Of a stretch of 64,000 bases of DNA, positions 8,100-34,475 are shown one piece after another. Source of the stretch: Amycolatopsis sp. NBC_01480. GTDB lineage: Bacteria > Actinomycetota > Actinomycetes > Mycobacteriales > Pseudonocardiaceae. Made by a program: the position numbers and the translations under genes. The stretch lies in contig NZ_CP109442.1 in NCBI RefSeq assembly GCF_036227205.1, forward strand, positions 6,324,001-6,388,000, given 5' to 3'. Below the pieces are notes generated by a model that ran no database searches, was not told the origin of the DNA, and saw only the letters and a list, made by a program, of their open reading frames with translations. Position 1 is the first letter of the stretch; the number at the start of each line of letters is the position of its first letter.

Positions 8100-8542
8100 A
8101 GCCAGGCTCCTTTGCCCCTGATCGGAATCCGACCACGGTACTCAGCGCCCTCCACGTCACCGTTCACGCCCGAGCGCCAGTGTGTCCCAGAGCACGAGCG
8201 CAGCGAGAGAAAGGCGAGTCGCGGCGAAAACCGGCTTTGTCTTGTGCGAGGAGGAATGCCTAGGCCCCGGCTCATCCGGGCAGGTGCGGCGCCTGGGGTT
8301 TGGTTCGGGAGGCCGGGCCCACCCCGACGGACCCGACCTCCCGGGGAAAGCGGACGGATGCGCACACATCCGCACCGCGTGGCTCAAACCGGGCGTTCAC
8401 CGCCGGCAGGCGAACGGCCCAGTCACGACATTGTCGTGACGCAGGTCATAAGTCAATCCGGCCGAACGGGTGTCACCGAAGGCTTGCTACCCACTCCCCG
8501 TACCCCTCAAACTCGCTGATCTTTCACCGGCCCCCGTTAACG

Positions 8543-8580
8543 CCGAAGATCCCGTGACCATGCGCTCACGGGATCTTCGG
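8543..8580. terminator. hairpin, 15-bp arms
   Basis: CCGAAGATCCCGTGA (8543-8557) and its exact complement (8566-8580) with an 8-nt loop. It lies about 180 bp beyond the sigB stop. There is no clear U-tract, so the terminator role is only likely. Confidence 0.5.
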
Positions 8581-8643
8581 GCCTACAAAAGGCGGTCAAC
8601 GCCGGTCGGCGCCGGCCGCTGGAAGGTGACCACCGACGGGGGT

Positions 8644-8690
8644 CCAGGGGGCTTGCCCCCTGGCGGGGGTTTGGGGGTTCGACCCCCAAA
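8644..8690. repeat. tandem G/C-run hairpins
   Basis: Two adjacent palindromes built from runs of G and C: CCAGGGGG-CTTG-CCCCCTGG (8644-8663) and TTTGGGGGT-TCG-ACCCCCAAA (8670-8690). Similar paired elements are scattered in actinobacterial genomes as far as I recall. Position after sigB fits termination; G-runs could also form other structures. Confidence 0.55.
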
Positions 8691-8755
8691 GGACACCTGA
8701 CTTGCGGACTGTGGTGAGCGTGCTCCGCGAGCACGGCTCGCCCCAACCCGCAACG

Positions 8756-9793
8756 TCAGCTGGCGTAAGCCCGCAGCCGCTCGGCTCGCTCGCCCTGGCG
8801 CAGCTTCGACATGACCTCGCGTTCGATCTGGCGCACGCGCTCGCGGGACAGGCCGAAGTGCTTGCCGATCTGGTCGAGGGTGCGGGGCTGGCCGTCGTCG
8901 AGGCCGTAGCGCAGGCGGATCACGTGCTGCTCGCGGTCGTCGAGCGTCGCGAGGACGCGGCGCAGGTCGTCCTGGAGCAGGCCGGAGATCACGGCGCTCT
9001 CGGCGTCGGTGGCCTCGGAGTCCTCGATGAAGTCGCCCAGCGGGGCGTCTTCCTCGGTGCCGACCGGCATGTCCAGGCTTACCGGGTCACGCGAGTGGTC
9101 GAGCAGGTCCGAGATCTTGTGCGCCGGGATGCCGGACTCGGCCGCCAGCTCCTCGTGCGTGGCGTCGCGGCCGAGCTGCTGGTGCAGGTCGCGCTTGATG
9201 CGGGCGAGCTTGTTGACCTGCTCGACCAGGTGGACCGGCAGCCGGATGGTGCGTCCCTGGTCGGCCATCCCCCTGGTGATGGCCTGGCGGATCCACCAGG
9301 TGGCGTAGGTCGAGAACTTGAACCCCTTGGAGTAGTCGAACTTCTCCACCGCTCGGATCAGGCCCAGGTTCCCCTCCTGGATCAGGTCGAGCAGCGGCAT
9401 CCCCCGGCCGGTGTAGCGCTTGGCCAGCGAGACCACCAGGCGGAGGTTGGCCTCCAGCAGGTGGTTCTTGGCCACGTGGCCGTCGCGCACCAGCGCGTTC
9501 AGCTCCGTGCGCCGCTTGGCGGTGAGGTTCTCGGCGGTGTCGGCCATGTGCTGGGCGAACACCCCGGCCTCGATGCGCTTGGCCAGCTCGACCTCGTCGG
9601 CCGCGCTGAGCAGCGCGGTCTTGCCGATGCCGTTGAGGTACACGCGCACCAGGTCGGCGGCCGGGCTCTGGGCGTCGAGGTCTTCCGCGGTGAGTGTCCC
9701 CACACCCGCCGGCGGCTCCTCGACGAAGGGCCGTGTTGGAATCCCGCGCTCGCGAATCCCGCGCGCTTCGCGTTCGAGAGTCTGGACTGACAT
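8756..9793 (-). CDS. sigB: RNA polymerase sigma factor SigB, group 2 (345 aa)
   Basis: Non-essential primary-like sigma factor directing stress or stationary-phase transcription. Region 1.2 ([16 protein letters not shown], about residue 45), region 2 ([36 protein letters not shown]), 2.4 ([14 protein letters not shown]), region 3, and region 4.2 ([20 protein letters not shown]) are intact. The acidic/basic N-terminal extension seen in the SigA gene at 48089 is absent. The ATG at 9793 is preceded by GGGGAGG. Proximity to DUF3099, DUF3039 and YihY matches the SigB neighbourhood of M. tuberculosis (Rv2707-Rv2710, from memory), which supports SigB over other HrdB-like paralogues. A likely ECF promoter lies upstream. 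Confidence 0.9.
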
Positions 9794-10108
9794 TCTGCCT
9801 CCCCGGTCACGGGCTGAACGTGTCTCGCCGGTGATGCGCCTGCGGTGACGGGCCCTGTGGAAACCCGGACCGCGGGCCCAGCCGGCTTGGCTGGACATCG
9901 ATCTCAACGCCCCGGGAACGCAAAACGTTCCCGGCTTGCTGAAGAGAGGACGGGGGGAAACGCCTCGCGGTTGCTCCACCAAAACTGAGCTTTTCCTGAG
10001 AAGCCCGCTGTGGCCCGGGAATCGTGAAGATCCGGTGAGGATCGCCGCTTCCGGTGAACCGGTGCGGCCGCGGATCCGTACGCGGTTCCGGCGGCCGGGA
10101 TATGTGGT
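9794..10108. other. sigB leader and promoter region
   Basis: 315 bp without a gene between sigB and dtd. It holds the promoter at 9906-9932 and a short palindrome, CCGGGAACG / CGTTCCCGG (9912-9934), which overlaps the -35 element. Nothing else recognisable. Confidence 0.5.
9906..9932 (-). promoter_or_regulatory. ECF-type promoter for sigB (SigH/SigR/SigE-like)
   Basis: On the minus strand GGGAAC (9932-9927), then 18 nt, then GTT (9908-9906), matching the GGGAAY-N18-GTT pattern known for SigR/SigH and related ECF sigma factors. The predicted transcript starts near 9898, giving a leader of about 105 nt before the sigB ATG. In mycobacteria sigB is controlled by SigE/SigH through such a site, so the match is functionally sensible. 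Confidence 0.65.
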
Positions 10109-10534
10109 CTAGACCTCTACGAGAACGGTGAACGGGCCGTCGTTCACGCTCTCCACCGCCATCATCGCGCCGAACCGGCCGGTCGCGACCGTCGCGCCGC
10201 GCGCCCGCAGCTCCTCGATCATGGCTTCCACCAGGGGTTCGGCCACTTCCGGGCGGGCTGCGGCGGTCCACGACGGGCGACGGCCTTTGCGGGTGTCGCC
10301 GTACAGCGTGAACTGTGAAACGACGAGCAGCGGCGCGCCCACGGTGGCGCACGACTGCTCGTCCCGCAGAATGCGCAGCTCGTGGAGCTTGCGTGCCATC
10401 GTGGCCGCTTTCACCCGATCGTCCGAGGCGTGAATTCCCAGCAGCACCAACAGTCCCGGTTCCGCGATGGCCCCGATCACATTTCCGTCCACTGTCACAC
10501 TCGCCCGGGTGACGCGGGCCGCGACCGCTTTCAT
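10109..10534 (-). CDS. dtd: D-aminoacyl-tRNA deacylase (141 aa)
   Basis: Removes D-amino acids (and glycine mis-charged on tRNA-Ala) from tRNA, a proofreading step. Family motifs: N-terminal [17 protein letters not shown], the catalytic-site motif [15 protein letters not shown] (about residue 79), and the C-terminal cross-subunit motif [11 protein letters not shown], the Gly-cisPro region reading NDGPFT here. Full length. It lies 10 bp downstream of the methyltransferase gene on the same strand, so it is probably the second gene of that operon. Confidence 0.93.
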
Positions 10535-10544
10535 GACGAGCGTC

Positions 10545-12065
10545 TCAGTGCCCGGCCGGCACGAGCATGCCGTGCCGCACCAGTTCGCGGACCACGGGCA
10601 GCGCCGCGGCGGCCAGTTCGCCGGGCTCGAGGCCCTGTGCCGCGGCCAGCAGCTCGATCAGGTCCTCCAGCGGCAGCGCGCCCTGGCAGCCCGCGAGCAG
10701 CCGCGTGGCGAGCTCGTCGACCTCGTGCTGCCACCCGGGCCCGTCGGTGCGGTGCAGCCGCCGCACGGTCGTCTCCCAGCCCTCGGGGCCGGGGGAGTCG
10801 ACGCGCTCCAGCAGCACGGTTTCCGGCACCCGGAACGCGACGTCCAGCAGCTCGTCGCCGTGCGCGCGAAGCCATTCCACGCGGTCGAGCCAGTTCGCGG
10901 CCTCCGGGCCCAGCGGATCGTCGTACGCCTGGCGCAGGTCTTCGCACACCACGGTCGGCGTTTTCCCCGCCGCACGGCGCAAAGTGACAAATCCGAAGCC
11001 GATGCCTCGCACGTCGTTCTCGGTGAACCAGTCCAGCCACGCGGCGGCTTTCGCGCGGCCTTCCGGCGAACGCGGGTCGATGCCCTCGTCTCGCAGCCAG
11101 GTGCCGACGTACAGCCCGGGGTCGGCGACGTCGCGCTGGACGAACCACGCGTCGGTCTCCGCGGGCAGCCAGCGGGCGACGCGGTCGGCCCAGTCCTCGC
11201 GGCCGGTGTGCAGCCAGGACGCGAGCAGCTGGCCGACGCCGCCGTCGTTGAGGAATCCCGGCAGCTGGCGCACCACGAGCGCGCTGGCGTCGTCGCCGGC
11301 CAGCCCGGAGTCGCGGTAGGTGTAATCGACCCGCGGCGGGCCGACGACGAACGGCGGATTGCACACGACCTGGTCGAACCGCCGCCGAGCGACGGGCGCG
11401 AACCACTCGCCGCGCACCAGCTCCACGTTCAGCTGGTTGAGCCGGAACGTGCCCGCGGCCAGGGCCAGCGCCCGCGCGGAGACGTCGGTGGCCGTCACCC
11501 GCTGTGCGTGGCGGGTGGCGTGCAGCGCCTGGACGCCGTTGCCGGTGCCGACGTCGAGCAGGCTGCCGACCGGGCGGCGGCTCGTCGCGCGGATCAGGCT
11601 CAGCGAGGCGTGCCCGACGCCGAGCACGTGGTCCTCGGGCACGGTGTGGCCCAGCATGTCGGCGTCGAGGTCCGACACCACCCACCAGGAGCCCTCTTCG
11701 TCACCGTGCGGGCGGATGTCGAGGGCGGCCTTGAACCCGCCGGCGTCGGCCTTCAGCACCCCGGCGGCCACCGCGGCCTCGGCGGAAAGCGGGGCAAAAG
11801 CCGCTTCGACCGACTTTTCGGGCTCCGCCAGGCCGAGCAGGAACAGCCGGATGAACGTGCCGAGGTCGCCGGCGTCGAGGCTCGCGCGGCGGGCCGGCTC
11901 CGGCTCGCCGCGGCCGAGCGCGGAGTGCGCCGCGCCGCCGAGTGCGGCGACCACGCCGTCGGCGTCGTAGGCGGCGCGGAGGAAGGCCTCGCGCAACCGC
12001 GCGCAGACGTCGTCGGACAGGTCGGGCAGAGGCGTGTTCGTGCTCACGGTGGGTAAGCCTGCCAC
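10545..12065 (-). CDS. SAM-dependent methyltransferase with N-terminal DUF7059-like domain (506 aa)
   Basis: Two-part protein. Residues about 1-150 form an actinobacterial helical domain; residues about 165-330 are a class I methyltransferase with the SAM-binding motif [13 protein letters not shown] and the catalytic NPPF loop ([11 protein letters not shown]), which is typical of N6-adenine or N5-glutamine methylases of the RlmG/PrmC type. The C-terminal part (about 380-506) looks like a small helical module. Target unknown, possibly rRNA or a release factor. The GTG at 12065 would sit 1 nt from the divergent start at 12067; the in-frame GTG at 12047 is a reasonable alternative. Confidence 0.85.
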
Positions 12066-12066
12066 G

Positions 12067-13341
12067 ATGGCCGCTGTGACCTACGAACGTGTCCTCGCTC
12101 CGCTCGGCGCCGCGCTGCCCGACCTGGAGGCGCTCTACGTCGACCTCCACCGACATCCCGAGCTGGCGTTCGCGGAGACGCGCACCGCCGCCGAGCTGGC
12201 GCGGCGGCTTGCGGACGACGGGTTCGAGGTGCACACGGGCGTCGGCCGCACCGGCGTGGTCGGCGTCCTGCGAAACGGCGAGGGGCCGACCGTGCTGCTT
12301 CGCGCCGACATCGACGCTCTGCCGGTCGAGGAGAAGACCGGCCTGCCGTACGCGAGCACCGCCCGTGGCGTCGACGCCGAAGGCCGCGATGTGCCGGTGA
12401 TGCACGCCTGCGGCCACGACATGCACGCCACCTGGCTCTCCGGCGCCGCGAGCCTGCTGAGCGCCGCCCGCGACAGCTGGTCCGGCACGCTGCTGGCGGT
12501 GTTCCAGCCGGGTGAGGAGGGCGGGGACGGCGCCGCCGGCATGGTCCACGGCGGTGTCTTCGACCTCGCGGGCAAGCCGGACTTCGTGTTCGGCCAGCAC
12601 CTCGTGCCCGGGCCGGCGGGCTGGGTGCTGACCCGGCCGGGCGTGATCATGGCGGCGGCGGACTCGCTGCGGATCACCCTGCACGGCCGCGGCGGGCACG
12701 GCTCGCGCCCGGAGACCACCGTCGACCCGGCCGTGCTCGCCGCTTCGGTGGTGCTGAAGCTGCAGACGATCGTCTCCCGCGAGACCGCGGCCACCGAGCC
12801 TGCCGTGGTCACGGTCGGCTCGATGCACGTGGGCACCACCGGAAACGTGATCGCCGACGACGCGGTGCTGGAGGTGAACACCCGCGCCTTCGACAATGCC
12901 GTGCTGCTGCGCGTGCGTGCCGCGATCGAGCGGATCGTCCAGGGCGAGGCCGCCGCGGCGGGTGTGCCGAAGCCACCGGAGATCGAGCTGGTCGGCACCT
13001 ACCCGGTCACGGCCAACGACGAGGCGGTGTCCGACGAGCTGACCGGGGTGTTCCGCGGGCACTTCGGGCCGGAGGCAACCCAGCCCGCGCCGCTGGTCAC
13101 CGGCAGCGAGGACTTCAGCGAGTTCGGCCGCGCGGCCGGCGCGCCCTCGGTGTTCTGGCTGGTCGGCGGCCTGGACCCGGTCGAGGTGATCACCGCGATG
13201 ACCGAGGGGCGGTTCGAGGCCGACATCCCGTCGAACCACTCGCCGCGGTTCGCGCCGGTGCTGCACCCGACCCTGCGGGCGGGGGTGGAGACCTTGGTGG
13301 TCGCCGCCCTTTCCCGGATGGCCCACCCGGGTGTCGAATGA
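12067..13341 (+). CDS. M20D-family amidohydrolase/peptidase (424 aa)
   Basis: Zinc-type amidohydrolase that cleaves N-acyl amino acids or similar amides. The N-terminus has DLHRHPELAFAE; metal-site segments include HACGHDMHATWL (about residue 115) and GEEGGDGAAGMV; the dimerisation domain carries RGGHGSRPETTVDP; the closing metal ligand region is SNHSPRF. Length fits the hippurate hydrolase/IAA-amino-acid hydrolase group. Substrate cannot be told. Divergent from the methyltransferase with almost no spacer, so the promoters must overlap the opposite coding region or the message is leaderless. Confidence 0.9.
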   Translation: MAAVTYERVLAPLGAALPDLEALYVDLHRHPELAFAETRTAAELARRLADDGFEVHTGVGRTGVVGVLRNGEGPTVLLRADIDALPVEEKTGLPYASTARGVDAEGRDVPVMHACGHDMHATWLSGAASLLSAARDSWSGTLLAVFQPGEEGGDGAAGMVHGGVFDLAGKPDFVFGQHLVPGPAGWVLTRPGVIMAAADSLRITLHGRGGHGSRPETTVDPAVLAASVVLKLQTIVSRETAATEPAVVTVGSMHVGTTGNVIADDAVLEVNTRAFDNAVLLRVRAAIERIVQGEAAAAGVPKPPEIELVGTYPVTANDEAVSDELTGVFRGHFGPEATQPAPLVTGSEDFSEFGRAAGAPSVFWLVGGLDPVEVITAMTEGRFEADIPSNHSPRFAPVLHPTLRAGVETLVVAALSRMAHPGVE

Positions 13342-25836: not shown

Positions 25837-25897
25837 GGCTCACGCCCCCGGCTCTGCCCCCGCTCCCGCCCCGGCCTCCGCTCCGCCCGGCTTTGAA

Positions 25898-26035
25898 GCG
25901 CCCCAATGTGGCGTTGGTTGCTCCAGCCCTGCCCCACCACCACCCTCAACGGAGGCGCTTCGCGCCCAGTCTTGATTCCACGCACCCAATGTGGCGTTGG
26001 GTGCGTTGGACGCACCGAACGCCACATTGGGGCGC
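25898..26035 (-). repeat. 138-bp inverted-repeat-ended element, copy 2 (opposite orientation)
   Basis: The same 18-bp terminal arms (25898-25915 and 26018-26035) and exactly the same length as 20743-20880, with the 102-bp interior reversed. One internal 11-bp AATGTGGCGTT unit is flipped relative to the rest of the interior. The two elements bracket the sugar ABC/ROK operon. Confidence 0.8.
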
Positions 26036-26207
26036 ATCGGGCGAAGCGGGAGGCGGGCCGAGCGTCAGGTGGGCCGGGGCGCAGCGGGCGGCGAGCTGAC
26101 GGGGCGGGGCTGCGGCGAGAGAGCGCAGCGAGGGTGTGGGGGGGAGAGTGCGGCGAGTGAGCGTGGCGACGCTCCGGGCGTCGAGCGCTAAGATCCCCGG
26201 AACGCCA

Positions 26208-26708: not shown

Positions 26709-27575
26709 GTGGGTTCAGCACGTGTCGCCGGCCGGGCCGGCACCATTCCGGCACCGATCTTGTTCGTTCTCAGCGGAATTTCGATGTATGCCGGTGCGGC
26801 CATCGCGGTCGGCCTTTTCGGGCACGCGACGCCCGCGGGGGTGGCTTGGCTGCGGTGCCTGGGCGCGGCCGCGGTGCTGCTCGCCTGGCGCCGTCCGTCA
26901 TGGGCCGCGTGGCAGGGCGGGCGGCTGTGGCTGGCGGTCGGGTTCGGGGTGGTCACGGCGGTGATGAACGTGGCCTTCTACGAGGCGATCGCGCGCCTGC
27001 CGCTGGGCACCGTGGTGGCGCTGGAGTTCGCCGGTCCCGTGGTCGTCGCGGCTTTCGGCTCGCGCTCGCGCCGGGACTTCGCCGCGCTGGCGCTGGTGGT
27101 CGCCGGGGTGGTCGCGATCGCGGACGTCCGGCTCGAAGGCAGCGCGCTGGGCGTGCTGCTCGCCCTCGGCGCGGCGGCCGCGTGGGCGGGCTACATCGTC
27201 CTCGGCAAACGCGTCGCGGTCGGCGGCAACGGCCTCGACAGCCTCGCGATCGGCTTCACGGCGGCGACCGTCGTGTTGTCCCCCTTGGCCCTCGGCACGG
27301 GAGAAGTGTGGTCTTCACCACGTCTGCTAGTGCTCGGAATCGGTGTAGGGGTGCTCTCGACGGTGTTGCCGTACGCGCTTGACCAGCTGGTACTGCGCCG
27401 CGTCGGCCAGGCCCGCTTCGCCGTGCTGCTCGCCCTGCTGCCCGTGACGGCCGGGGTGATCGGCTTCGTGGCGCTGGCCCAAGTGCCGAGCCTGCCCGAG
27501 GCGCTGGGCACGCTGGCGGTGGTCGCCGGCATCGCGCTGCGCGGGCGGGACAAGGCCGTGGCACCGCCGGGCTGA
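26709..27575 (+). CDS. EamA/RhtA-family exporter (288 aa)
   Basis: Ten-helix drug/metabolite superfamily transporter, closest in style to the threonine/homoserine exporter RhtA. Two EamA repeats (about residues 20-140 and 155-280); features include the first-half GVAWLRCLGAAAVLL, VAFYEAIARLPLGTVVALEF, and the second-half GWYGVLSTVLPY-equivalent GVGVLSTVLPYALDQLVLRR. Substrate is not determinable. GTG start at 26709. Convergent with ileS, 13 bp between stops. Confidence 0.85.
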   Translation: MGSARVAGRAGTIPAPILFVLSGISMYAGAAIAVGLFGHATPAGVAWLRCLGAAAVLLAWRRPSWAAWQGGRLWLAVGFGVVTAVMNVAFYEAIARLPLGTVVALEFAGPVVVAAFGSRSRRDFAALALVVAGVVAIADVRLEGSALGVLLALGAAAAWAGYIVLGKRVAVGGNGLDSLAIGFTAATVVLSPLALGTGEVWSSPRLLVLGIGVGVLSTVLPYALDQLVLRRVGQARFAVLLALLPVTAGVIGFVALAQVPSLPEALGTLAVVAGIALRGRDKAVAPPG

Positions 27576-27588
27576 CTAGGCCGACGGA

Positions 27589-30500
27589 TCAGTTCCGGCG
27601 GAGCCAGAACGTCAGCCCCAGCCCGGATTCCTCGTGCGGCTTCGCGTCCCAGCCCGGTTCGCCCGGCTCGAAGACGGTGGCCAGCACCTCCTCCGCGATC
27701 AGTTCGCGGTGCTCGGCGAGCGCGCCGGCCGTCTGCTCATCCGCGGTGACGTAACGCAGTTCGATCCGGTCGGAGACGTCCAGGCCGCCCGACTTACGCG
27801 CGTCCTGGATGAGCCGGATCGCGTCACGGGCCAGCCCGGCGCGCCGCAGCTTCGGGGTCAACGCCAGGTCCAGCGCGAGCGTCGCGCCCGCCTCGGAAAC
27901 CGCGGACCAGCCCTCGCGCGGGGTTTCGGTGAGCAGCACCTCGTCAGACGAAAGCGGCACGCTCGAGCCGTCGACCACCACGCTCGCGGTCCCGGCGGCG
28001 AGATCCCGCTGCAACGCCGCGGCGTCGGCCTCCGCGATCGCCTTCGCGACGGCCTGGACGCCCTTGCCGAATCGCTTGCCCAGCGGGCGAAAGGCGGCCT
28101 TCGCGGTGATGTCGACCAGCGGTCCGCCGGCCTCGGCGACGCCCAGCACCGCGCCGACGTTCAGCTCGGCCGCGATCTCCCCGAGCAGTTCCGGGCCCAG
28201 CTCGTCGAAGCCCTGCGCCGAAGCCAGCGCGCGGGCCAGCGGTTGCCGGGTCTTCACGCCCGACTCGGCGCGCGCGGTGCGGCCCAGCTCGACCAGCCGT
28301 CGGGCCAGCGCCATCTGCTCGCCCAGCGCCGGGTCGACGAGGCTGTCGTCCGCCACCGGGTAGGACGCGAGGTGCACCGACAGCGGGGCGTCCGCCTCGA
28401 CCGGCACCACGAGGTCCTGCCAAACGCGTTCGGTGATGAACGGCGTGAGCGGGGCCAGCAGCAGCGTCACGGTCCGGACGGCCTCGTGCAGTGTGGCCAG
28501 CGCGGCCGGGTCGCCGCGCCAGAAACGGCGGCGGCTGCGGCGCACGTACCAGTTGGACAGGTCGTCGACGAAGGCGGCGAGCAGCTTGCCCGCCTCCTGG
28601 AGGTCGTACGCCGCCATCGCGCCGTCGACCCGGCGCACGAGACCGTGCAGTTCCGAGAGCAGCCAGCGATCCAGCACCGGCCGCTCGGCGGGCGCCGGGT
28701 CCCCCGCCGACGGAGTCCACTCGGCGAGGCGGCCGTAGAGCGCCTGGAACGAGACGGTGCTCCAGTAGGTCAGGAGGGTCTTGCGGACGGCCTCCTGGAT
28801 GGTGGTGTCCCCGACCCGACGGTTCGCCCACGGCGAGCCGACGGCCGCCATGAACCAGCGCACCGCGTCGGCGCCGTGCCGTTCCAGCAACGGGATCGGC
28901 TCGAGCACGTTGCCGAGGTGCTTGGACATCTTGCGGCCGTCCTCGGCCACGATGTGCCCGAGGCAGACCACGTTCTCGTACGCGGAGCGGTCGAAGACCA
29001 GCGTGCCGACGGACATCAGCGTGTAGAACCAGCCGCGGGTCTGGTCGATCGCCTCGCAGATGAACTGCGCCGGGTAGCTCCGCTCGAACAGCTCCCGGTT
29101 GCGGTGCGGGTAGCCGAACTGGGCGAACGGCATCGAGCCCGAGTCGTACCAGGCGTCGATCACCTCCGGCACCCGCCGGGTGGTGGCGCCGCACTCGCAG
29201 GGGAAGGTGATTTCGTCGATATACGGCCGATGCGGGTCGAGCCCGGCCAGGTCGCGCCCGGCCAGCCCACCCAGTTCGGCGAGCGAGCCGACGCAGGTGA
29301 GGTGCCCGTCCGGGCAGCGCCAGATCGGCAGCGGCGTGCCCCAGTAACGCGACCGCGACAGCGCCCAGTCCACGTTGTTGGTCAGCCAGTCGCCGTACCG
29401 GCCGTGCTTGATCGTCTCCGGGTGCCAGTTCGTGCGCTCGTTCTCGCGCAGCAGCTCGTCGCGCACCTCGGTGGTGCGGACGTACCAGGACGGCTGGGCG
29501 TAGTAGATGAGCGCGGTGTGGCAGCGCCAGCAATGCGGATAGCTGTGCTCGTACGGCTGTTCCCGCAGCAGCAGACCGCGGGCGCGCAGGTCGTCGACGA
29601 GGGGATTGTTGGCTTCCCTGAAGAACATTCCGCCGACGAGCGGCACCCCGGCCTCGAAGGTCCCGTCCGGGCGAACCGGATTGACCATCGGCAGCCCGTA
29701 CGCCCGGCAGCCGGCCAGGTCGTCGGCGCCGAACGCCGGGGCCTGGTGCACCAGGCCGGTGCCGCTCTGCGTGGTCACGTAGTCCGCGAGGATGACGAAG
29801 TGCGCGTGCGGCACCTCGACCAGGTCGAACGGGCGGCGGTAGGTCCAGCGTTCGAGTTCGCGGCCGGTGAAGGACTCGCCGGTGCGCGTCCAGCCGTCGC
29901 CGAGCGCCGGGGCGGCCAGTTCGTCGGCGACCACAACGCGTTCCTCGCCGTCGGTCAGCACGACGTAGGCGGCCTCGGGGTCCACGGCCACGGCGGTGTT
30001 GGACACCAGGGTCCACGGCGTGGTCGTCCAGACCACCAGCGACGTGGTGCCCGCCAGCGGGCCGGAAGTCAGCGGGAAACGCACGTAGACCGACGGGTCG
30101 ACGTCGGTTTCGTAGCCCTGGGCCAGCTCGTGGTCCGACAGGGCGGTCTGGTCGCGCGGGCACCAGGGCGCGACCCGGAAGTCCTCGACCAGCCGGCCCT
30201 GCCCGAAGATCTCCTTGAGCGACCACCAGACGGACTCGATGTACGCCGGGTCCATGGTCCGGTAGGCGTCGTCCAGGTCGACCCAGTAGCCCATGCGCTC
30301 GGTCAGCTCGGCGAACGCGTCGGTGTGCCGGGTGACCGACTCGCGGCAGCGGTCCGCGAACTCGGCGATGCCGTACTTCTCGATGTCCGGTTTGCCGGCG
30401 AGCCCCAGCTCCTTCTCGACGGCGAGCTCGACGGGCAGGCCGTGGCAGTCCCAGCCGGCCTTGCGCGCGACGTAAAAGCCCTTCATCGTCTGGTAGCGCG

Positions 30501-30705
30501 GGAAGACGTCCTTGAAGACGCGGCTCTCGATGTGGTGCGTGCCGGGCTTGCCGTTCGCGGTCGGCGGGCCCTCGTAGAAGATCCAGCCGGGGCGGCCCTC
30601 GGACACCTTCAGGCTGCGGGCGAAAACGCTGTTCTCGCGCCAGAAATCGAGCACCTCGTGATCGAGGGCCGGCAGGTCGACCTGCCCCGGTACCGGGTTG
30701 TACAT
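27589..30705 (-). CDS. ileS: isoleucyl-tRNA synthetase with altered HIGH motif (1038 aa)
   Basis: Charges tRNA-Ile; essential cytoplasmic enzyme. Catalytic core starts GPPTANGKPG, but where the class I HxGH signature belongs the residues are G55-T-H-H58, i.e. the first and third positions are swapped; KMSKS reads KMSKH (residues 592-596), as in eukaryote-like type 2 enzymes. The CP1 editing domain (VVWTTTPWTLVSNTAVAV, then GTGLVHQAPAFGADD), the WYDSGSMPFAQ zinc/KMSKS side, and the anticodon-binding domain (RLIQDARKSGG) are complete. ATG 30705 has GGGAGGA. No T-box leader was seen in the 155-bp upstream gap. See finding on mupirocin. Confidence 0.96.
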   Translation of the reverse strand: MYNPVPGQVDLPALDHEVLDFWRENSVFARSLKVSEGRPGWIFYEGPPTANGKPGTHHIESRVFKDVFPRYQTMKGFYVARKAGWDCHGLPVELAVEKELGLAGKPDIEKYGIAEFADRCRESVTRHTDAFAELTERMGYWVDLDDAYRTMDPAYIESVWWSLKEIFGQGRLVEDFRVAPWCPRDQTALSDHELAQGYETDVDPSVYVRFPLTSGPLAGTTSLVVWTTTPWTLVSNTAVAVDPEAAYVVLTDGEERVVVADELAAPALGDGWTRTGESFTGRELERWTYRRPFDLVEVPHAHFVILADYVTTQSGTGLVHQAPAFGADDLAGCRAYGLPMVNPVRPDGTFEAGVPLVGGMFFREANNPLVDDLRARGLLLREQPYEHSYPHCWRCHTALIYYAQPSWYVRTTEVRDELLRENERTNWHPETIKHGRYGDWLTNNVDWALSRSRYWGTPLPIWRCPDGHLTCVGSLAELGGLAGRDLAGLDPHRPYIDEITFPCECGATTRRVPEVIDAWYDSGSMPFAQFGYPHRNRELFERSYPAQFICEAIDQTRGWFYTLMSVGTLVFDRSAYENVVCLGHIVAEDGRKMSKHLGNVLEPIPLLERHGADAVRWFMAAVGSPWANRRVGDTTIQEAVRKTLLTYWSTVSFQALYGRLAEWTPSAGDPAPAERPVLDRWLLSELHGLVRRVDGAMAAYDLQEAGKLLAAFVDDLSNWYVRRSRRRFWRGDPAALATLHEAVRTVTLLLAPLTPFITERVWQDLVVPVEADAPLSVHLASYPVADDSLVDPALGEQMALARRLVELGRTARAESGVKTRQPLARALASAQGFDELGPELLGEIAAELNVGAVLGVAEAGGPLVDITAKAAFRPLGKRFGKGVQAVAKAIAEADAAALQRDLAAGTASVVVDGSSVPLSSDEVLLTETPREGWSAVSEAGATLALDLALTPKLRRAGLARDAIRLIQDARKSGGLDVSDRIELRYVTADEQTAGALAEHRELIAEEVLATVFEPGEPGWDAKPHEESGLGLTFWLRRN

Positions 30706-30860
30706 GACGTCCTCCCTCGGCGCGCTCGACGTCGGCCAGCTCGGAAGGTACCCCGGGCCGCCGCGCCCGGGCTCCCGCTTTTCGCGGCCGGGGTCACAGC
30801 CGCCGCGGATGGCCCGGACCGCGCGGACCGGGGATACTGGCCCGGTCCCGGGAGGTGGCG

Positions 30861-32204
30861 ATGACCAAGGCGGCGTCCGCGGTGGCCAAGGAGCTGGCCG
30901 CGGCCGGGGTGGCCGGCGTCCACCTGGCCTGGGCCGACAACAACGGCATCCCGCGCTCGCGCATTGTGCCCGTCGGCGGGCTCGCCGGGGCCGCCGCGCG
31001 CGGGGTGGGCGCGACCTCGCTGTTCGCCGTCTTCGACAGCCACGACGCCATCACGTACGGCCATTCGGGGCTCGCCACGCCGTCGGGTGACATCCGGCTG
31101 GTGCCGGTGGTCGAGCGGATCCGGCGGCTGGCCGGGCAGGCCGCGCTCGCCTGGGCGCCGGCCCGCCAGCTCGCCGCCGACGGCTCGCCGTGGCCGTACT
31201 GCCAGCGCACGGTGCTGGAGCGCCAGGTCGCCGAGGCCGGGCGGCGCGGGCTGGAATTCCGGGCGGGGTACGAGCTGGAGTTCACCGTCGCGCCGGCTGG
31301 CCGGGTTTCCGAGCCCGGGCACCCCGGCCCCGCGTACAGTCCGCACGCGCTCGTGGGCCTGGACGGCTTCGTCACCGCACTGCTGAACGATTTCGCCGCC
31401 AACGGCCTCGAGATCGGCCAGCTGCACGCCGAGTACGGCGTCGCGCAGCTGGAGCTGTCGCTGGCCGCGACCGACCCGCTGTCCGCGGCCGACGACCAGC
31501 TGCTCGCCCGCCAGACGATCCACGCCGCCGCCCACGCCCACGGGCTGGTGGTGAGTTTCGCGCCGCTGGTCGGCCTCGGCGCGGCCGGCAACGGCTGGCA
31601 CCTGCACACGTCGGTGCGGCGCCGGGGGCGGAACCTGTTGTCCGGTGAGGGTTTGCCGGCCGGTGAAGGGGCCGCGTACCTCGGCGGGCTGCTGCGTGAC
31701 CTGCCCGCGCTGACCGCGGTCACGGCACCCAGCGTGCCCTCGACGCTGCGGCTGCGGCCGGGCTTTTTCGCTGGGGCGTATGCGTTCTGGGGCGTCGAGA
31801 ACCGCGAGGCGCCGCTGCGGTACGTGCCGGGTTCGAAGCTGCTCGGGCCGGATCACGCGAACGTCGAGCTGAAGACGTCCGACGCGTCGGCGAACCCCTA
31901 TCTGGCGCTGGCCGTCGTGCTGGCCGCCGGGATGGCCGGGATCGAGGACGACGCGGGCCTGCCCGAGCCGATCGGGCAGGACCCGGGCGGCTGGACCGAG
32001 GGCGAGCGCGAGACCCGCGGGGTGGCGCCGCTGCCCGCGACCCCGGCCGAGCAGGACGCGGCTTTGCTGGCCTCGCCCCGCGTTTCGGGCGCACTCGGCG
32101 ACGAGCTGCTCGGGGCGTTTCGCGCGGTGCGCGCATCCGACGCGGCGTGGGCGGCGGAGCGCAGCACCGAAGCAGTCATCGCCGCGCACCGGTGGCGGTA
32201 CTGA
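30861..32204 (+). CDS. glutamine synthetase-like protein (447 aa)
   Basis: Member of the glutamine synthetase fold that ligates glutamate to ammonia or an amine. Active-site segments: GYELEFTV (metal Glu), HAEYGVAQLELSL, GNGWHLHTSV (His loop), STLRLRPGFFAGAYAFWGVENREAPLR split as STLRLRPGFF and FWGVENREAPLR, and ELKTSDASANPYLA. The last would be RxxDxxANPYL with Arg in canonical enzymes, here Lys. The N-terminal region is short and the adenylylation loop of GlnA is absent, so this is a GlnA-like paralogue such as a gamma-glutamylamine synthetase, not the main GlnA. ATG at 30861, GGGAGG at 30850. Confidence 0.85.
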   Translation: MTKAASAVAKELAAAGVAGVHLAWADNNGIPRSRIVPVGGLAGAAARGVGATSLFAVFDSHDAITYGHSGLATPSGDIRLVPVVERIRRLAGQAALAWAPARQLAADGSPWPYCQRTVLERQVAEAGRRGLEFRAGYELEFTVAPAGRVSEPGHPGPAYSPHALVGLDGFVTALLNDFAANGLEIGQLHAEYGVAQLELSLAATDPLSAADDQLLARQTIHAAAHAHGLVVSFAPLVGLGAAGNGWHLHTSVRRRGRNLLSGEGLPAGEGAAYLGGLLRDLPALTAVTAPSVPSTLRLRPGFFAGAYAFWGVENREAPLRYVPGSKLLGPDHANVELKTSDASANPYLALAVVLAAGMAGIEDDAGLPEPIGQDPGGWTEGERETRGVAPLPATPAEQDAALLASPRVSGALGDELLGAFRAVRASDAAWAAERSTEAVIAAHRWRY

Positions 32205-32209
32205 GCCTG

Positions 32210-32989
32210 ATGTCCTCCCGTGTAGACGGTGACCACACCGGCCTGTCCCGCGTGCACTGGCTGCCCGGCGGCGCGCGCCTGGCCGCCGAGGCGCGGGCCG
32301 AGCTGCCGCAGAAGGACGGTCTGGCCGCGGCGTTCACGGCGCTGGCCGCGCTGCGTGCCGCCGGTATCGCGGTGGCGGACCAGGACGAGGTCGCCGTCGC
32401 GGCAGGCACCGTGCGAGGCCCGGGCGGACCGCCGCCGGGTGAGAAGGGCCGGTCGGACTTCCGCCTGCGCATCCCGTCCGATAACGCGACGGCGGGCACT
32501 TCGGCGGTGGGCTTGGCCTCGGCCGTCGAAACGCTCTCGTCGGGCCGCCTGCGCGCGGTCCCGGCGACGGGGGAGTGGACCGCCACGACGTTGTTCGATC
32601 TGCTGGTGTCCCTGTGGGACCTGCCCCGGGTGGCGGTGATCGCCCGGGTGGACGCGGCTGAGCTGGGTGCTCCCGACACCCCGGAACGTGCGCTGCTCGA
32701 CTACCTGGACACCGGAGTTCCTCCACTGTGGACGAATCGCTGGCGTCCGGAGGGTGGGCATCACGTGCTCGTGGCGGGGGTTCGGATCGGGGCGGAGGGT
32801 ACGTTGTTGTCCGTTGTGGACACTTATCCGGTGTTGGGGGACAACGGGATTCACGAGCAGCCGTTGGAGTGGGTCACCGCCGCGTTGCGTGAGGAGCCGG
32901 GCACCCTGCTGCTGGTCGTCGATGCGGAGCACGCGCCGACCCTCGAGCGGGCCGTGCTAGCAGCAGGCCTAACCCCGCGAATGCCGTGA
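32210..32989 (+). CDS. protein of unknown function, partner of the GS-like gene (259 aa)
   Basis: Not recognised. It is translated 5 bp after the GS-like stop, so the two are probably one operon. Sequence shows Ala-rich helices (LAAEARAELPQKDGLAAAFTALAALRAAG), an acidic, conserved-looking DSDQDEVAV-type stretch, a glycine/proline loop (RGPGGPPPGEKG), and a C-terminal alpha/beta region with LLSVVDTYPVLGDNGIHEQP and LLLVVDAEHAPTLERAV that resembles a cysteine-peptidase-like (papain-fold) tail, weakly. No signal peptide or membrane segment. Start uncertain: GTG codons slightly upstream are possible. Confidence 0.7.
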   Translation: MSSRVDGDHTGLSRVHWLPGGARLAAEARAELPQKDGLAAAFTALAALRAAGIAVADQDEVAVAAGTVRGPGGPPPGEKGRSDFRLRIPSDNATAGTSAVGLASAVETLSSGRLRAVPATGEWTATTLFDLLVSLWDLPRVAVIARVDAAELGAPDTPERALLDYLDTGVPPLWTNRWRPEGGHHVLVAGVRIGAEGTLLSVVDTYPVLGDNGIHEQPLEWVTAALREEPGTLLLVVDAEHAPTLERAVLAAGLTPRMP

Positions 32990-33023
32990 CGGCCCCAGTC
33001 AAAAGGGGCCGCCACAGCCCCCG

Positions 33024-34475
33024 TCACTCGGCTTTCGCGTTGCCCGGGGCCAGCCGGGAGTGCTTGCGGCCGTAGAAGAAGTAGATCAGCAGGCCCAGGA
33101 CCAGCCACGCGGCGAAGCGGATCCAAGTGAGCACGTCGAGGTTCAGCATCAGGTAGAAGCACGCCACCGCGGCGATGATCGGCACCACCGGGGAAAACGG
33201 CACGGTGAACGGCCGTTTCAGGTCCGGCCGACGGCGCCTCAGCAGGGGCACCGCCACCGCGACGATGATCATCGCCGACAGGGCGCCGATACTGACCATG
33301 TCGGCCAGGGCGGAGATCGGGACGAACGCCGCCAGCACGGCGATCAGGACCGCGCCGGCGATGGTCATCCGGTGCGGGGTACCCCAGCGCGGGTGCGCGG
33401 TGCCGATCGCCTTCGGCAGCAGGCCGTCGCGGCCCATGGCGAAGCCGATCCGGCCGATGGTCACCAGCTCCACCATCATCACCGAGGTCAGGCCGGTCAC
33501 GGCGCCGAGCGAGATCAGCGCGCCCACCCAGTGCTGGCCGACGCGGTCGAAGGCGTCCGCGAGCGGGGCGCCGGTGTTGATGTCGGTGTACGGGATCATG
33601 CCGGTCAGCACGATCGAGACGCCGATGTAGAGCACCGCGCACACCGCGAGCGCGCCGAGGATGCCGACGCGGAGGTCCTTGCGCGGGTTGATCGTCTCCT
33701 CGCCGAGGTTGGCCAGTGCCTCGAAACCGGTGTAGGCGAAGAAGACCACGGCGGCGGCGGTGACCATGCCCGCGACGCCGTACATGGTCTGCTCCAGCCC
33801 CAGCGCGGCCTGGATCACCGGCTGGTGCAGCGCGCTGGCGCCCTCGGCCGCGGGCTGCGAAGGCGGGATGAACGGCGTCAGGTTGGCGCCCTTGATGAAG
33901 AACACGCCGACCGCCAGGATCAGCACGCACACCGCGACCTTCACCACCACGAGCACGTTCGTCAGCCAGGCCGACTCCCTGATCCCCAGCACCGCGACGA
34001 CGGTCAGCACCGCGATGATGAGCACGGCGCCGACGTTCACTTTCGCGTCTTCACCGAACCACGCCGGTGACAGCCCCAGCAGGTTCGCCAGGTAGCCGGA
34101 CCAGCCGCGCGACACCACGGCCGCGCCGAGCGCGAACTCGAGCAGCAGGTCCCAGCCGATGATCCAGGCGAACACCTCGCCGAGCGTGGCGAACGCGTAC
34201 GTGTAAGCACTGCCGGCCGTCGGGACGCTGGACGCCAGCTCGGCGTAACACAGCGCCGCGAGCCCGGCGACGATCGCGCCGAGCACGAACGACAGAGTCA
34301 CCGATGGACCGGCGTGCGTCTTGGCTTCGACGCCCGCCAGGGTGAAGATGCCCGTGCCGATGATGATCCCGACGCCGAACCCGATCAGGTCGCGCCCCTT
34401 CAGGCGCCGCTTCAGCTCGCCAGAGTCCTGCCGCTTGAGGACCTCGTCCACGTCCAAAGTTCTCCGCACACCCAT
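33024..34475 (-). CDS. APC-family amino-acid permease, cationic amino-acid transporter-like (483 aa)
   Basis: Twelve-helix amino acid importer or exchanger. N-terminal LKGRDLIGFGVGIIIGTGIFTLAG is the helix-1 signature of CAT-type permeases; GPSVTLSFVLGAIVAGLAAL and FAYTGFEALANLGEETINPRKDL are the usual helix 2 and 6 motifs. The C-tail is short and basic. Convergent with the GS-like operon, only 34 bp between stops, which could place amino-acid uptake beside amine metabolism. Substrate unknown. Confidence 0.88.
   Translation of the reverse strand: MGVRRTLDVDEVLKRQDSGELKRRLKGRDLIGFGVGIIIGTGIFTLAGVEAKTHAGPSVTLSFVLGAIVAGLAALCYAELASSVPTAGSAYTYAFATLGEVFAWIIGWDLLLEFALGAAVVSRGWSGYLANLLGLSPAWFGEDAKVNVGAVLIIAVLTVVAVLGIRESAWLTNVLVVVKVAVCVLILAVGVFFIKGANLTPFIPPSQPAAEGASALHQPVIQAALGLEQTMYGVAGMVTAAAVVFFAYTGFEALANLGEETINPRKDLRVGILGALAVCAVLYIGVSIVLTGMIPYTDINTGAPLADAFDRVGQHWVGALISLGAVTGLTSVMMVELVTIGRIGFAMGRDGLLPKAIGTAHPRWGTPHRMTIAGAVLIAVLAAFVPISALADMVSIGALSAMIIVAVAVPLLRRRRPDLKRPFTVPFSPVVPIIAAVACFYLMLNLDVLTWIRFAAWLVLGLLIYFFYGRKHSRLAPGNAKAE

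What the first reader, a model, noticed from the sequence alone, without database searches (positions are those of the whole stretch)
30532..30543. Isoleucyl-tRNA synthetase with swapped HIGH motif (GTHH), predicted mupirocin hyper-resistance
Seen: at the class I signature position the enzyme reads G55-T-H-H58, not H-x-G-H, and KMSKS reads KMSKH. Known, from memory: eukaryote-like type 2 IleRS enzymes tolerate mupirocin, and a published study on a Priestia megaterium IleRS2-type enzyme linked a swap of positions 1 and 3 of HxGH (GxHH) to hyper-resistance. Inference: this organism makes a naturally highly mupirocin-tolerant IleRS, apparently as its only IleRS in this region.
Basis: partly seen in the sequence, partly recalled or inferred. 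Interest (0 to 1): 0.72.

Follow-up and report, generated by a model that had tools for sequence, protein, structure and literature searches.

The report
Acquired spare mupirocin-tolerant isoleucyl-tRNA synthetase
This actinomycete keeps its normal isoleucine-tRNA-charging enzyme and has gained, from a distant relative, a second one of a kind already known to be almost insensitive to the antibiotic mupirocin; the enzyme type is known, but its arrival as a single-gene spare copy had to be uncovered.

Summary
The GTHH motif is real and exactly where stated (30532-30543, residues 55-58), and KMSKH is at 592-596. The enzyme is a type 2 IleRS. The motif swap and its link to mupirocin hyper-resistance are already published (PMC10485003), and GTHH/GAHH with KMSKH is usual among relatives (79 and 77 of 80). 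The GTHH gene is an acquired spare. The nearest relative, G047, has an empty site there; the insert is essentially ileS alone; and the protein groups with Micromonosporaceae (81% identity at best), not with its own family's GxHH enzymes (53-66%). Of 80 genus genomes, 5 carry an extra copy. In two of these (G042, G069) and in two other genera, the extra ileS lies among shared biosynthetic-type genes, which suggests a link to an IleRS inhibitor. The most likely role here is an inhibitor-tolerant back-up IleRS without T-box control. Hyper-resistance of this particular enzyme is inferred, not measured.

The parts
27589..30705 (-). ileS, type 2 isoleucyl-tRNA synthetase with GxHH motif, 1038 aa (the acquired copy)
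   Evidence: ORF; Pfam tRNA-synt_1, Anticodon_1, DUF5915; best solved relatives are type 2: 1ile 902.6 bits and 8c8w 853.2, against 351.0 for type 1 8c9f (types of the 8c chains from PMC10485003 and recall)
30532..30543 (-). codons for G55-T-H-H58, the swapped class I signature motif
28918..28932 (-). codons for KMSKH (residues 592-596)
27576..30750 (.). inserted segment, about 3.2 kb, absent from the sister genome G047; starts right after the EamA stop codon and ends where homology resumes in the ileS/glnA-like intergenic region (right edge uncertain, about 30750-30800)
   Evidence: DNA comparison with G047 C42; no direct repeat of 8 nt or more shared by the two edges
26709..27575 (+). EamA-type transporter, left neighbour, part of the host block
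   Evidence: Pfam PF00892; next to the glnA-like gene, without ileS between, in 12 of 12 loci from other genomes, G022 not counted
30855..32204 (+). glutamine-synthetase-like gene, right neighbour, part of the host block
   Evidence: Pfam PF00120; a match of 77% or more in 14 of 25 genus genomes searched, G000 included
32147..34475 (.). DUF6885 protein (ORF 32147-32989 +) and amino-acid permease (33024-34475 -); in G022 its ileS lies between these two genes instead
   Evidence: Pfam; synteny

Best explanation
The window gene is a horizontally acquired, intact second isoleucyl-tRNA synthetase of the GxHH type 2 kind. Shown by sequence: the motif; a second, canonical HYGH IleRS elsewhere in the genome; the empty site in the nearest relative; a gene tree in conflict with host kinship; constraint on the protein. 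Inferred: the third-position histidine takes over catalysis and clashes with mupirocin as in the published GxHH enzymes, so this enzyme keeps charging tRNA-Ile when an IleRS inhibitor (mupirocin or an actinomycete compound) blocks the housekeeping HYGH enzyme. It is then a resistance back-up, carried without the T-box control that the housekeeping gene appears to have.
For: Second ileS, HYGH/KMSKS, at G000:C1:9845933-9849007, beside FtsZ-, SepF-, DivIVA-, LspA- and RluD-like proteins (names by inspection). 80 of 80 genus genomes have a copy 41-44% identical to the window protein, with HYGH checked in 50 of them; 5 of 80 have an extra copy at 49-100%, all GxHH. Nearest relative G047 (HYGH protein 98.9% identical) has one IleRS only and an empty site whose left junction is exactly the EamA stop. 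Tree: window and G022 copies in an 11-row subclade with 9 Micromonosporaceae rows (SH-aLRT 100, quick method); holding them with 15 GxHH rows of their own family is rejected, p-AU 3.8e-7. Identity to Dactylosporangium fulvum: GTHH 81.2%, HYGH 67.8%. T-box-like leader before the HYGH gene in 4 of 5 genus loci, none in 5 of 5 GxHH loci. Published Ki: D. radiodurans ALHH 6.6 mM, S. griseus 10 mM; motif exchange shifts Ki about 175- to 823-fold (Table 1). GxHH ileS among shared biosynthetic-type genes in G042, G069, G097, G181.
Against: No Ki, MIC or expression data for this enzyme. A figure legend in PMC10485003 lists Ile/Val/Leu/Met/Tyr at X; here X is Thr. The host's HYGH enzyme looks type 2 as well and may already be micromolar-tolerant, so the gain against mupirocin may be modest. 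No evident biosynthetic pathway next to the window copy: of 10 ORFs scanned (ileS included) none but a glutamine-synthetase-like protein, also present without ileS, could hint at one, and 2 had no match; the rest of the window was not scanned. The tree in which 20 Micromonosporaceae rows exclude the window copy is not rejected (p-AU 0.12), so the donor may be a sister of that family. All T-box matches are below the family's gathering score (25.6-35.6 against 93 bits), and the fifth HYGH locus (G058) had none.
Confidence: 0.68

Rival explanations
1. Redundant housekeeping copy on the way to replacing the old one: the GTHH enzyme is simply a second IleRS with no special role in resistance, an intermediate towards lineages that kept only the GxHH enzyme.
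For: GxHH-only genomes exist: 27 of 66 GxHH holders lack an HYGH match at 1e-250 (some are incomplete drafts) and 13 of 29 named genomes do. In 23 of 80 relatives the GxHH gene itself lies near cell-division-cluster genes, none of them among L040-L083.
Against: The HYGH gene is intact and constrained (G000-G047 dN/dS 0.07) and keeps its locus and T-box-like leader; extra copies are rare in the genus (5 of 80) and 3 of those 5 lie among biosynthetic-type genes.
Confidence: 0.2
2. Biosynthetic tRNA-dependent transferase like SbzA of the SB-203208 pathway rather than a resistance enzyme.
For: SbzA is an extra cluster-borne IleRS that transfers Ile to a metabolite and is also called a self-resistance protein (passages of PMC6331615 and PMC12945691). 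Neighbourhoods with GxHH ileS in G042 also hold GNAT, AMP-binding, carrier and GltX-like proteins.
Against: No evident pathway beside the window copy (10 ORFs); the protein is 76-80% identical to enzymes that are the only IleRS match in 8 named Micromonosporaceae genomes, so it is very likely a full-function synthetase.
Confidence: 0.05
3. The only or main IleRS of the organism.
For: No other IleRS gene inside the 64 kb window.
Against: A complete HYGH/KMSKS ileS scores 834.7 bits, over the family cut-off of 621.4, and 80 of 80 genus genomes have one of that kind.
Confidence: 0.02
4. Contamination or misassembly of foreign DNA.
For: The gene groups with another family.
Against: It sits between genes of a block found in other genus genomes in a two-contig assembly of completeness 99.96 and contamination 1.02; a sister copy (87%) lies two genes away in G022.
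Confidence: 0.01

Closest known systems
IleRS2 with non-canonical G/AXHH motif (S. griseus, D. radiodurans; PMC10485003, PMC4861432)
   Same: Type 2 by sequence, swapped first and third motif positions, editing-site stretches shared with 1ile.
   Different: X is Thr rather than one of the residues listed in a figure legend; KMSKH; here it is a second gene beside a canonical HYGH enzyme instead of the sole one.
Two-IleRS bacteria: IleRS1 + IleRS2 in some Bacillaceae (stated in the introduction of PMC10485003)
   Same: Two full-length IleRS genes, one more drug-tolerant.
   Different: Here both appear to be of the type 2 family (canonical HYGH plus GxHH). The type of the HYGH copy rests on its 42% identity to the window protein and was not tested against solved structures.
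MupA/MupB, acquired IleRS2 of resistant staphylococci (plasmid-borne ileS2 named in PMC10485003; NCBIfam models seen)
   Same: Acquired extra IleRS that bypasses an inhibited housekeeping enzyme.
   Different: Chromosomal, actinomycete, not on an identified mobile element; the motif state of MupA/MupB was not examined here.
SbzA, extra IleRS in the SB-203208 cluster (PMC6331615, passages)
   Same: Extra IleRS in an actinomycete.
   Different: SbzA is cluster-borne and transfers Ile to the product; no cluster was seen around the window copy.

Membership tests
IleRS2, G/AXHH subgroup | Type 2 IleRS by sequence and C-terminal part | tested here: met
   Alignment to P. megaterium IleRS2 chain 8c8w reaches query residue 1009, to type 1 chains 8c9f and 1ffy only 767 and 793; bits 853 against 351 and 336
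IleRS2, G/AXHH subgroup | Gly/Ala at position 1 and His at position 3 of the signature motif | tested here: met
   GTHH aligned to HVGH/GVHH; 80 of 80 relatives GxHH
IleRS2, G/AXHH subgroup | mM-range Ki for mupirocin | not testable with these tools
   Published only for other members
IleRS2, G/AXHH subgroup | X is Ile/Val/Leu/Met/Tyr (figure legend) | tested here: not met
   X is Thr; Thr or Ala in 79 of 80 relatives. A description of sampled enzymes rather than a strict criterion
Horizontally acquired second ileS | Second complete ileS in the same genome | tested here: met
Horizontally acquired second ileS | Gene tree in conflict with host kinship and an empty site in close kin | tested here: met
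   exact donor family not settled (p-AU 0.12)
Mobile resistance element | Integrase, transposase, repeats or plasmid at the insert ends | tested here: not met
   Insert holds ileS alone and lies in the chromosome-sized contig; no direct repeat of 8 nt or more shared by the edges, one 8-nt inverted match; one search shows only diverged short repeats across the stretch
Self-resistance gene of a biosynthetic cluster | Lies in a biosynthetic cluster | tested here: inconclusive
   No evident pathway among 10 ORFs scanned between 22416 and 39920; the rest of the window was not scanned. Biosynthetic-type neighbours seen instead for G042, G069, G097, G181 and G058 copies

The most novel reading that the evidence does not exclude
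GxHH-type ileS is a free-standing inhibitor-resistance gene that circulates among antibiotic-making actinomycetes on top of a canonical type 2 IleRS, giving a 'two IleRS2' state that I did not find described (35 of 62 GxHH holders sampled in this family; 16 of 29 named genomes). In four genomes of three genera it would be the self-resistance gene of an undescribed pathway (shared genes include luciferase-like monooxygenase, methyltransferase, SIS, BtpA, TauD, GNAT and MFS proteins; AsnB in three; MutE- and GltX-like in two) that makes a new IleRS inhibitor. The window copy would then be an escaped resistance gene without its pathway.
Probability: 0.35. Interest if true: 0.65.

Novelty: new member of a known kind. 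Interest (0 to 1): 0.4.

Why it matters
What is useful is the setting: a canonical and a swapped-motif type 2 IleRS side by side in one cell, with an empty-site control in a close relative. That makes the supposed selective force (IleRS inhibitors in soil) directly testable by deleting one gene. The same kind of gene among shared biosynthetic-type genes in sister species is a practical lead to an undescribed IleRS inhibitor.

Tried and rejected
Considered and rejected: sole IleRS; a canonical HxGH elsewhere in the protein; a T-box before the GTHH gene (none, 601 bases, nor in L010); presence in G000 of the exporter found beside the G042 ileS (no match at 1e-70); mobile-element ends. Led nowhere: sigma-70-type promoter scan (none found; other promoter types not covered); dating the G000 and G022 gains against each other (dS of the GTHH pair 0.49, of the HYGH pair 0.35, too rough). 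Paper searches listed no report of two type 2 IleRS in one actinomycete; only listings were seen, and the held library lacks most subscription journals and the Bacilli pair paper. No structure prediction was run; no order-wide survey was made.

Rows dropped or not looked at: of 54 loci chosen for the tree, three proteins were not caught by my pattern (L014, L168 and the GxHH protein of L229), leaving 52 rows; one search removed four more (L229_HYGH, L230, L110, L115), leaving 48. One search was given 29 of the 80 loci. One search covered 25 of 80 genus genomes; 11 of 25 lack a close glnA-like gene, so the host block is not genus-wide. One search called genes in 8 of the fetched neighbourhoods. 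The cluster's upstream part was fetched for G042 and G097 but not for G069. Gene picks come from a rough GC3 script and some are wrong frames.

Full report
OBSERVATION. The minus-strand ORF 27589-30705 encodes a 1038-residue protein whose residues 55-58 are GTHH (window 30532-30543) and 592-596 KMSKH (28918-28932). Pfam gives tRNA-synt_1, Anticodon_1 and DUF5915, with a weaker tRNA-synt_1g match. Against solved structures it scores highest with type 2 enzymes (T. thermophilus 1ile 902.6 bits, P. megaterium 8c8w 853.2) and much lower with type 1 (8c9f 351.0, 1ffy 336.0); GTHH is aligned column by column with HVGH and with GVHH, and the editing-site stretches WTTTPWTL and GTGxVHQAPAFGA are shared with 1ile.

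WHAT IS KNOWN ABOUT THE MOTIF. PMC10485003 (abstract, introduction, Results parts 1 and 2 of 3, Discussion read) describes G/AXHH as a natural variant of type 2 IleRS (86 of 379 sequences in that study), gives Ki 6.6 mM for the D. [quoted passage not shown] P. megaterium IleRS2 itself is naturally HVGH. PMC4861432 (abstract and sections 24 and 28 read) gives Ki 10 mM for the S. griseus enzyme. In our own count, 80 of 80 genome contigs relatives carry GxHH (40 GAHH, 39 GTHH, 1 GVHH) with KMSKH in 77 and RMSKH in 3; 29 of 29 family loci L161-L189 carry GxHH (24 GTHH, 4 GAHH, 1 GIHH) with KMSKH. KMSKH is thus a trait of the clade, though the G058 copy has GVHH with KMSKS.

A SECOND IleRS. The ileS model finds two full-length genes in this genome over the cut-off: the window gene (855.9 bits) and C1:9846449-9849001 (834.7 bits). 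The second reads HYGH and KMSKS and lies in a block with FtsZ-, SepF-, DivIVA-, LspA- and RluD-like proteins (names given by inspection). In the genus, 80 of 80 genomes have a copy 41-44% identical to the window protein, and only 5 of 80 have an extra, closer copy: G000 itself, G022 (87%), G069 and G042 (63%), G058 (49%). The HYGH motif was checked in 50 of the 80 (where the pattern demanded it); the five extra copies read GTHH (four) and GVHH (one). The genus is possibly Amycolatopsis or a close relative: 20 kb of the second contig matches two plasmids of that genus over 5-10% of its length, a hint and not an identification.

HOW IT CAME. In the HYGH tree of 51 rows (50 genus genomes and one outgroup) the nearest relative of the window genome is G047 (98.9% aa identity), which has one IleRS match only (a draft of about 70 contigs, completeness 99). 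G047 carries the same neighbourhood with 94-97% DNA identity, and between the EamA stop codon and the glnA-like gene there is a short spacer instead of ileS. The left junction is exactly at the EamA stop (window 27575/27576); on the right, homology resumes between about 30750 and 30800. The insert holds ileS and no other gene; its two edges share no direct repeat of 8 nt or more. Twelve loci of the block, from 12 further genomes, also lack ileS there (two of them, G042 and G069, have an extra ileS elsewhere), as do G060 and G056. The block is not genus-wide: 14 of 25 genomes searched, G000 included, have a glnA-like match of 77% or more. The protein tree (52 rows, quick method) puts the window and G022 copies in an 11-row subclade with Dactylosporangium, Phytohabitans, Virgisporangium, Actinoplanes-type and other Micromonosporaceae, apart from the GxHH enzymes of the window's own family, which are 53-66% identical to it, while Micromonosporaceae reach 73-81%. 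Holding the window and G022 copies with 15 GxHH rows of their family is rejected (p-AU 3.8e-7); a tree in which the 20 Micromonosporaceae rows exclude them is not rejected (p-AU 0.12), so the donor may be a sister lineage. For D. fulvum the GTHH proteins are 81.2% and the HYGH proteins 67.8% identical to the window genome's, which joint descent would not predict.

AN UNRESOLVED DETAIL. In G022 the sister copy sits in the same neighbourhood but in another slot, between DUF6885 and the amino-acid permease, two genes away. The other 12 genomes of their 14-row clade in the HYGH tree lack an extra copy. One gain with several losses and a local move, or two gains from related donors next to each other, are both possible; the GTHH pair is slightly more diverged than the HYGH pair (dS 0.49 against 0.35), which leans to two gains but is weak.

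HOW COMMON THE PAIR IS. Of 297 family genomes sampled, 62 hold a GxHH-type copy at E 1e-240. Of these 62 plus four genus genomes, 39 of 66 also hold an HYGH-type copy (35 of the 62); 27 of 66 do not, some of them incomplete drafts (37 of 58 among the more complete ones hold it). Of 29 named genomes, chosen from 80 loci, 16 hold both and 13 only the GxHH type. PMC10485003 mentions coexistence of type 1 and type 2 in some Bacillaceae; a pair of two type 2 enzymes did not turn up in the listings of the searches I made, which cover only the held open-access library.

REGULATION. A T-box match precedes the HYGH gene in 4 of 5 genus loci (25.6-35.6 bits, E 0.00028 to 0.11, all under the gathering score of 93; G058 had none, E 0.001 for the window genome alone), with the stretch GGGUGGUACCGCG in the best one. 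None was found in 5 of 5 GxHH loci or in 601 bases around the window gene's start. T-box control of amino-acid genes in actinobacteria, ileS among the words, is a published topic (PMC1262725, seen in the search listing only). So the spare copy appears to be outside the starvation-sensing control of the housekeeping gene.

WHY A SPARE. The strongest functional hint comes from sister copies. In G042 and G069 the extra GTHH ileS lies beside an AMP-binding protein, a MutE-like protein, an AsnB-type amidotransferase, an MFS transporter, a GltX-like protein and a LysR regulator. In G042 a further AMP-binding protein and aldehyde dehydrogenase, luciferase-like monooxygenase, methyltransferase, carrier, SIS, BtpA, aminotransferase, TauD and GNAT proteins lie upstream; this part was not fetched for G069. 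G097 has a third, HYGH-like ileS there. Self-resistance or a tRNA-dependent step, as for SbzA (PMC6331615 and PMC12945691, passages read), would both fit. The window copy has no evident pathway among the 10 ORFs scanned, and its genome lacks a close match of the exporter. I did not survey how many of all extra copies lie in such clusters. The best reading is an inhibitor-tolerant back-up enzyme without its own pathway; mupirocin is the inhibitor with evidence for the motif, but the true selective agent is unknown.

VERDICT. Observation confirmed; interpretation partly supported: known enzyme type, wrong on being the only IleRS, and better described as an acquired second gene. Hyper-resistance is inferred from the motif and published relatives and needs a Ki measurement.

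Noticed in passing
L146+L239 (G042), L147 (G069), L229+L241 (G097), L234 (G181): Shared biosynthetic-type genes around a GxHH ileS in four genomes of three genera (luciferase-like monooxygenase, methyltransferase, SIS, BtpA, TauD, GNAT, MFS; AsnB in three; MutE- and GltX-like in two; upstream part not fetched for G069). Possibly an undescribed IleRS inhibitor pathway.
   Followed up: partly
L229:10763-13792 (G097): A third, diverged HYGH-like IleRS (55% to the window genome's HYGH enzyme over most of its length, long branch) beside the GxHH ileS; possibly an SbzA-like transferase.
   Followed up: no
L148 (G058), ileS at 8454-11687: A GVHH/KMSKS IleRS (49% to the window protein) between a 2-oxopent-4-enoate hydratase-like protein and a cupin-like and further biosynthetic-looking genes, with a 2-ketoarginine methyltransferase-like protein (below its cut-off); a different neighbourhood type.
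   Followed up: partly
L145 (G022) 9048-12155 versus window 27589-30705: Sister extra ileS copies (87%) lie in the same block but in different slots two genes apart, while the other 12 genomes of their clade in the HYGH tree lack an extra copy.
   Followed up: partly
window 25981-26036, within about 25842-26180: A palindromic interspersed repeat (102 matches in the genome, many of them both strands of one site) inside a roughly 340-bp stretch that the sister genome G047 lacks, about 1.5 kb from the ileS insert.
   Followed up: partly
L009:11110-11286 (-): T-box-like leader before the housekeeping HYGH ileS, about 60 bases upstream of its likely start codon (start judged by eye).
   Followed up: partly
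L009:4205-4319 (-): SAM-IV riboswitch (113.6 bits) a few kb from the housekeeping ileS.
   Followed up: no
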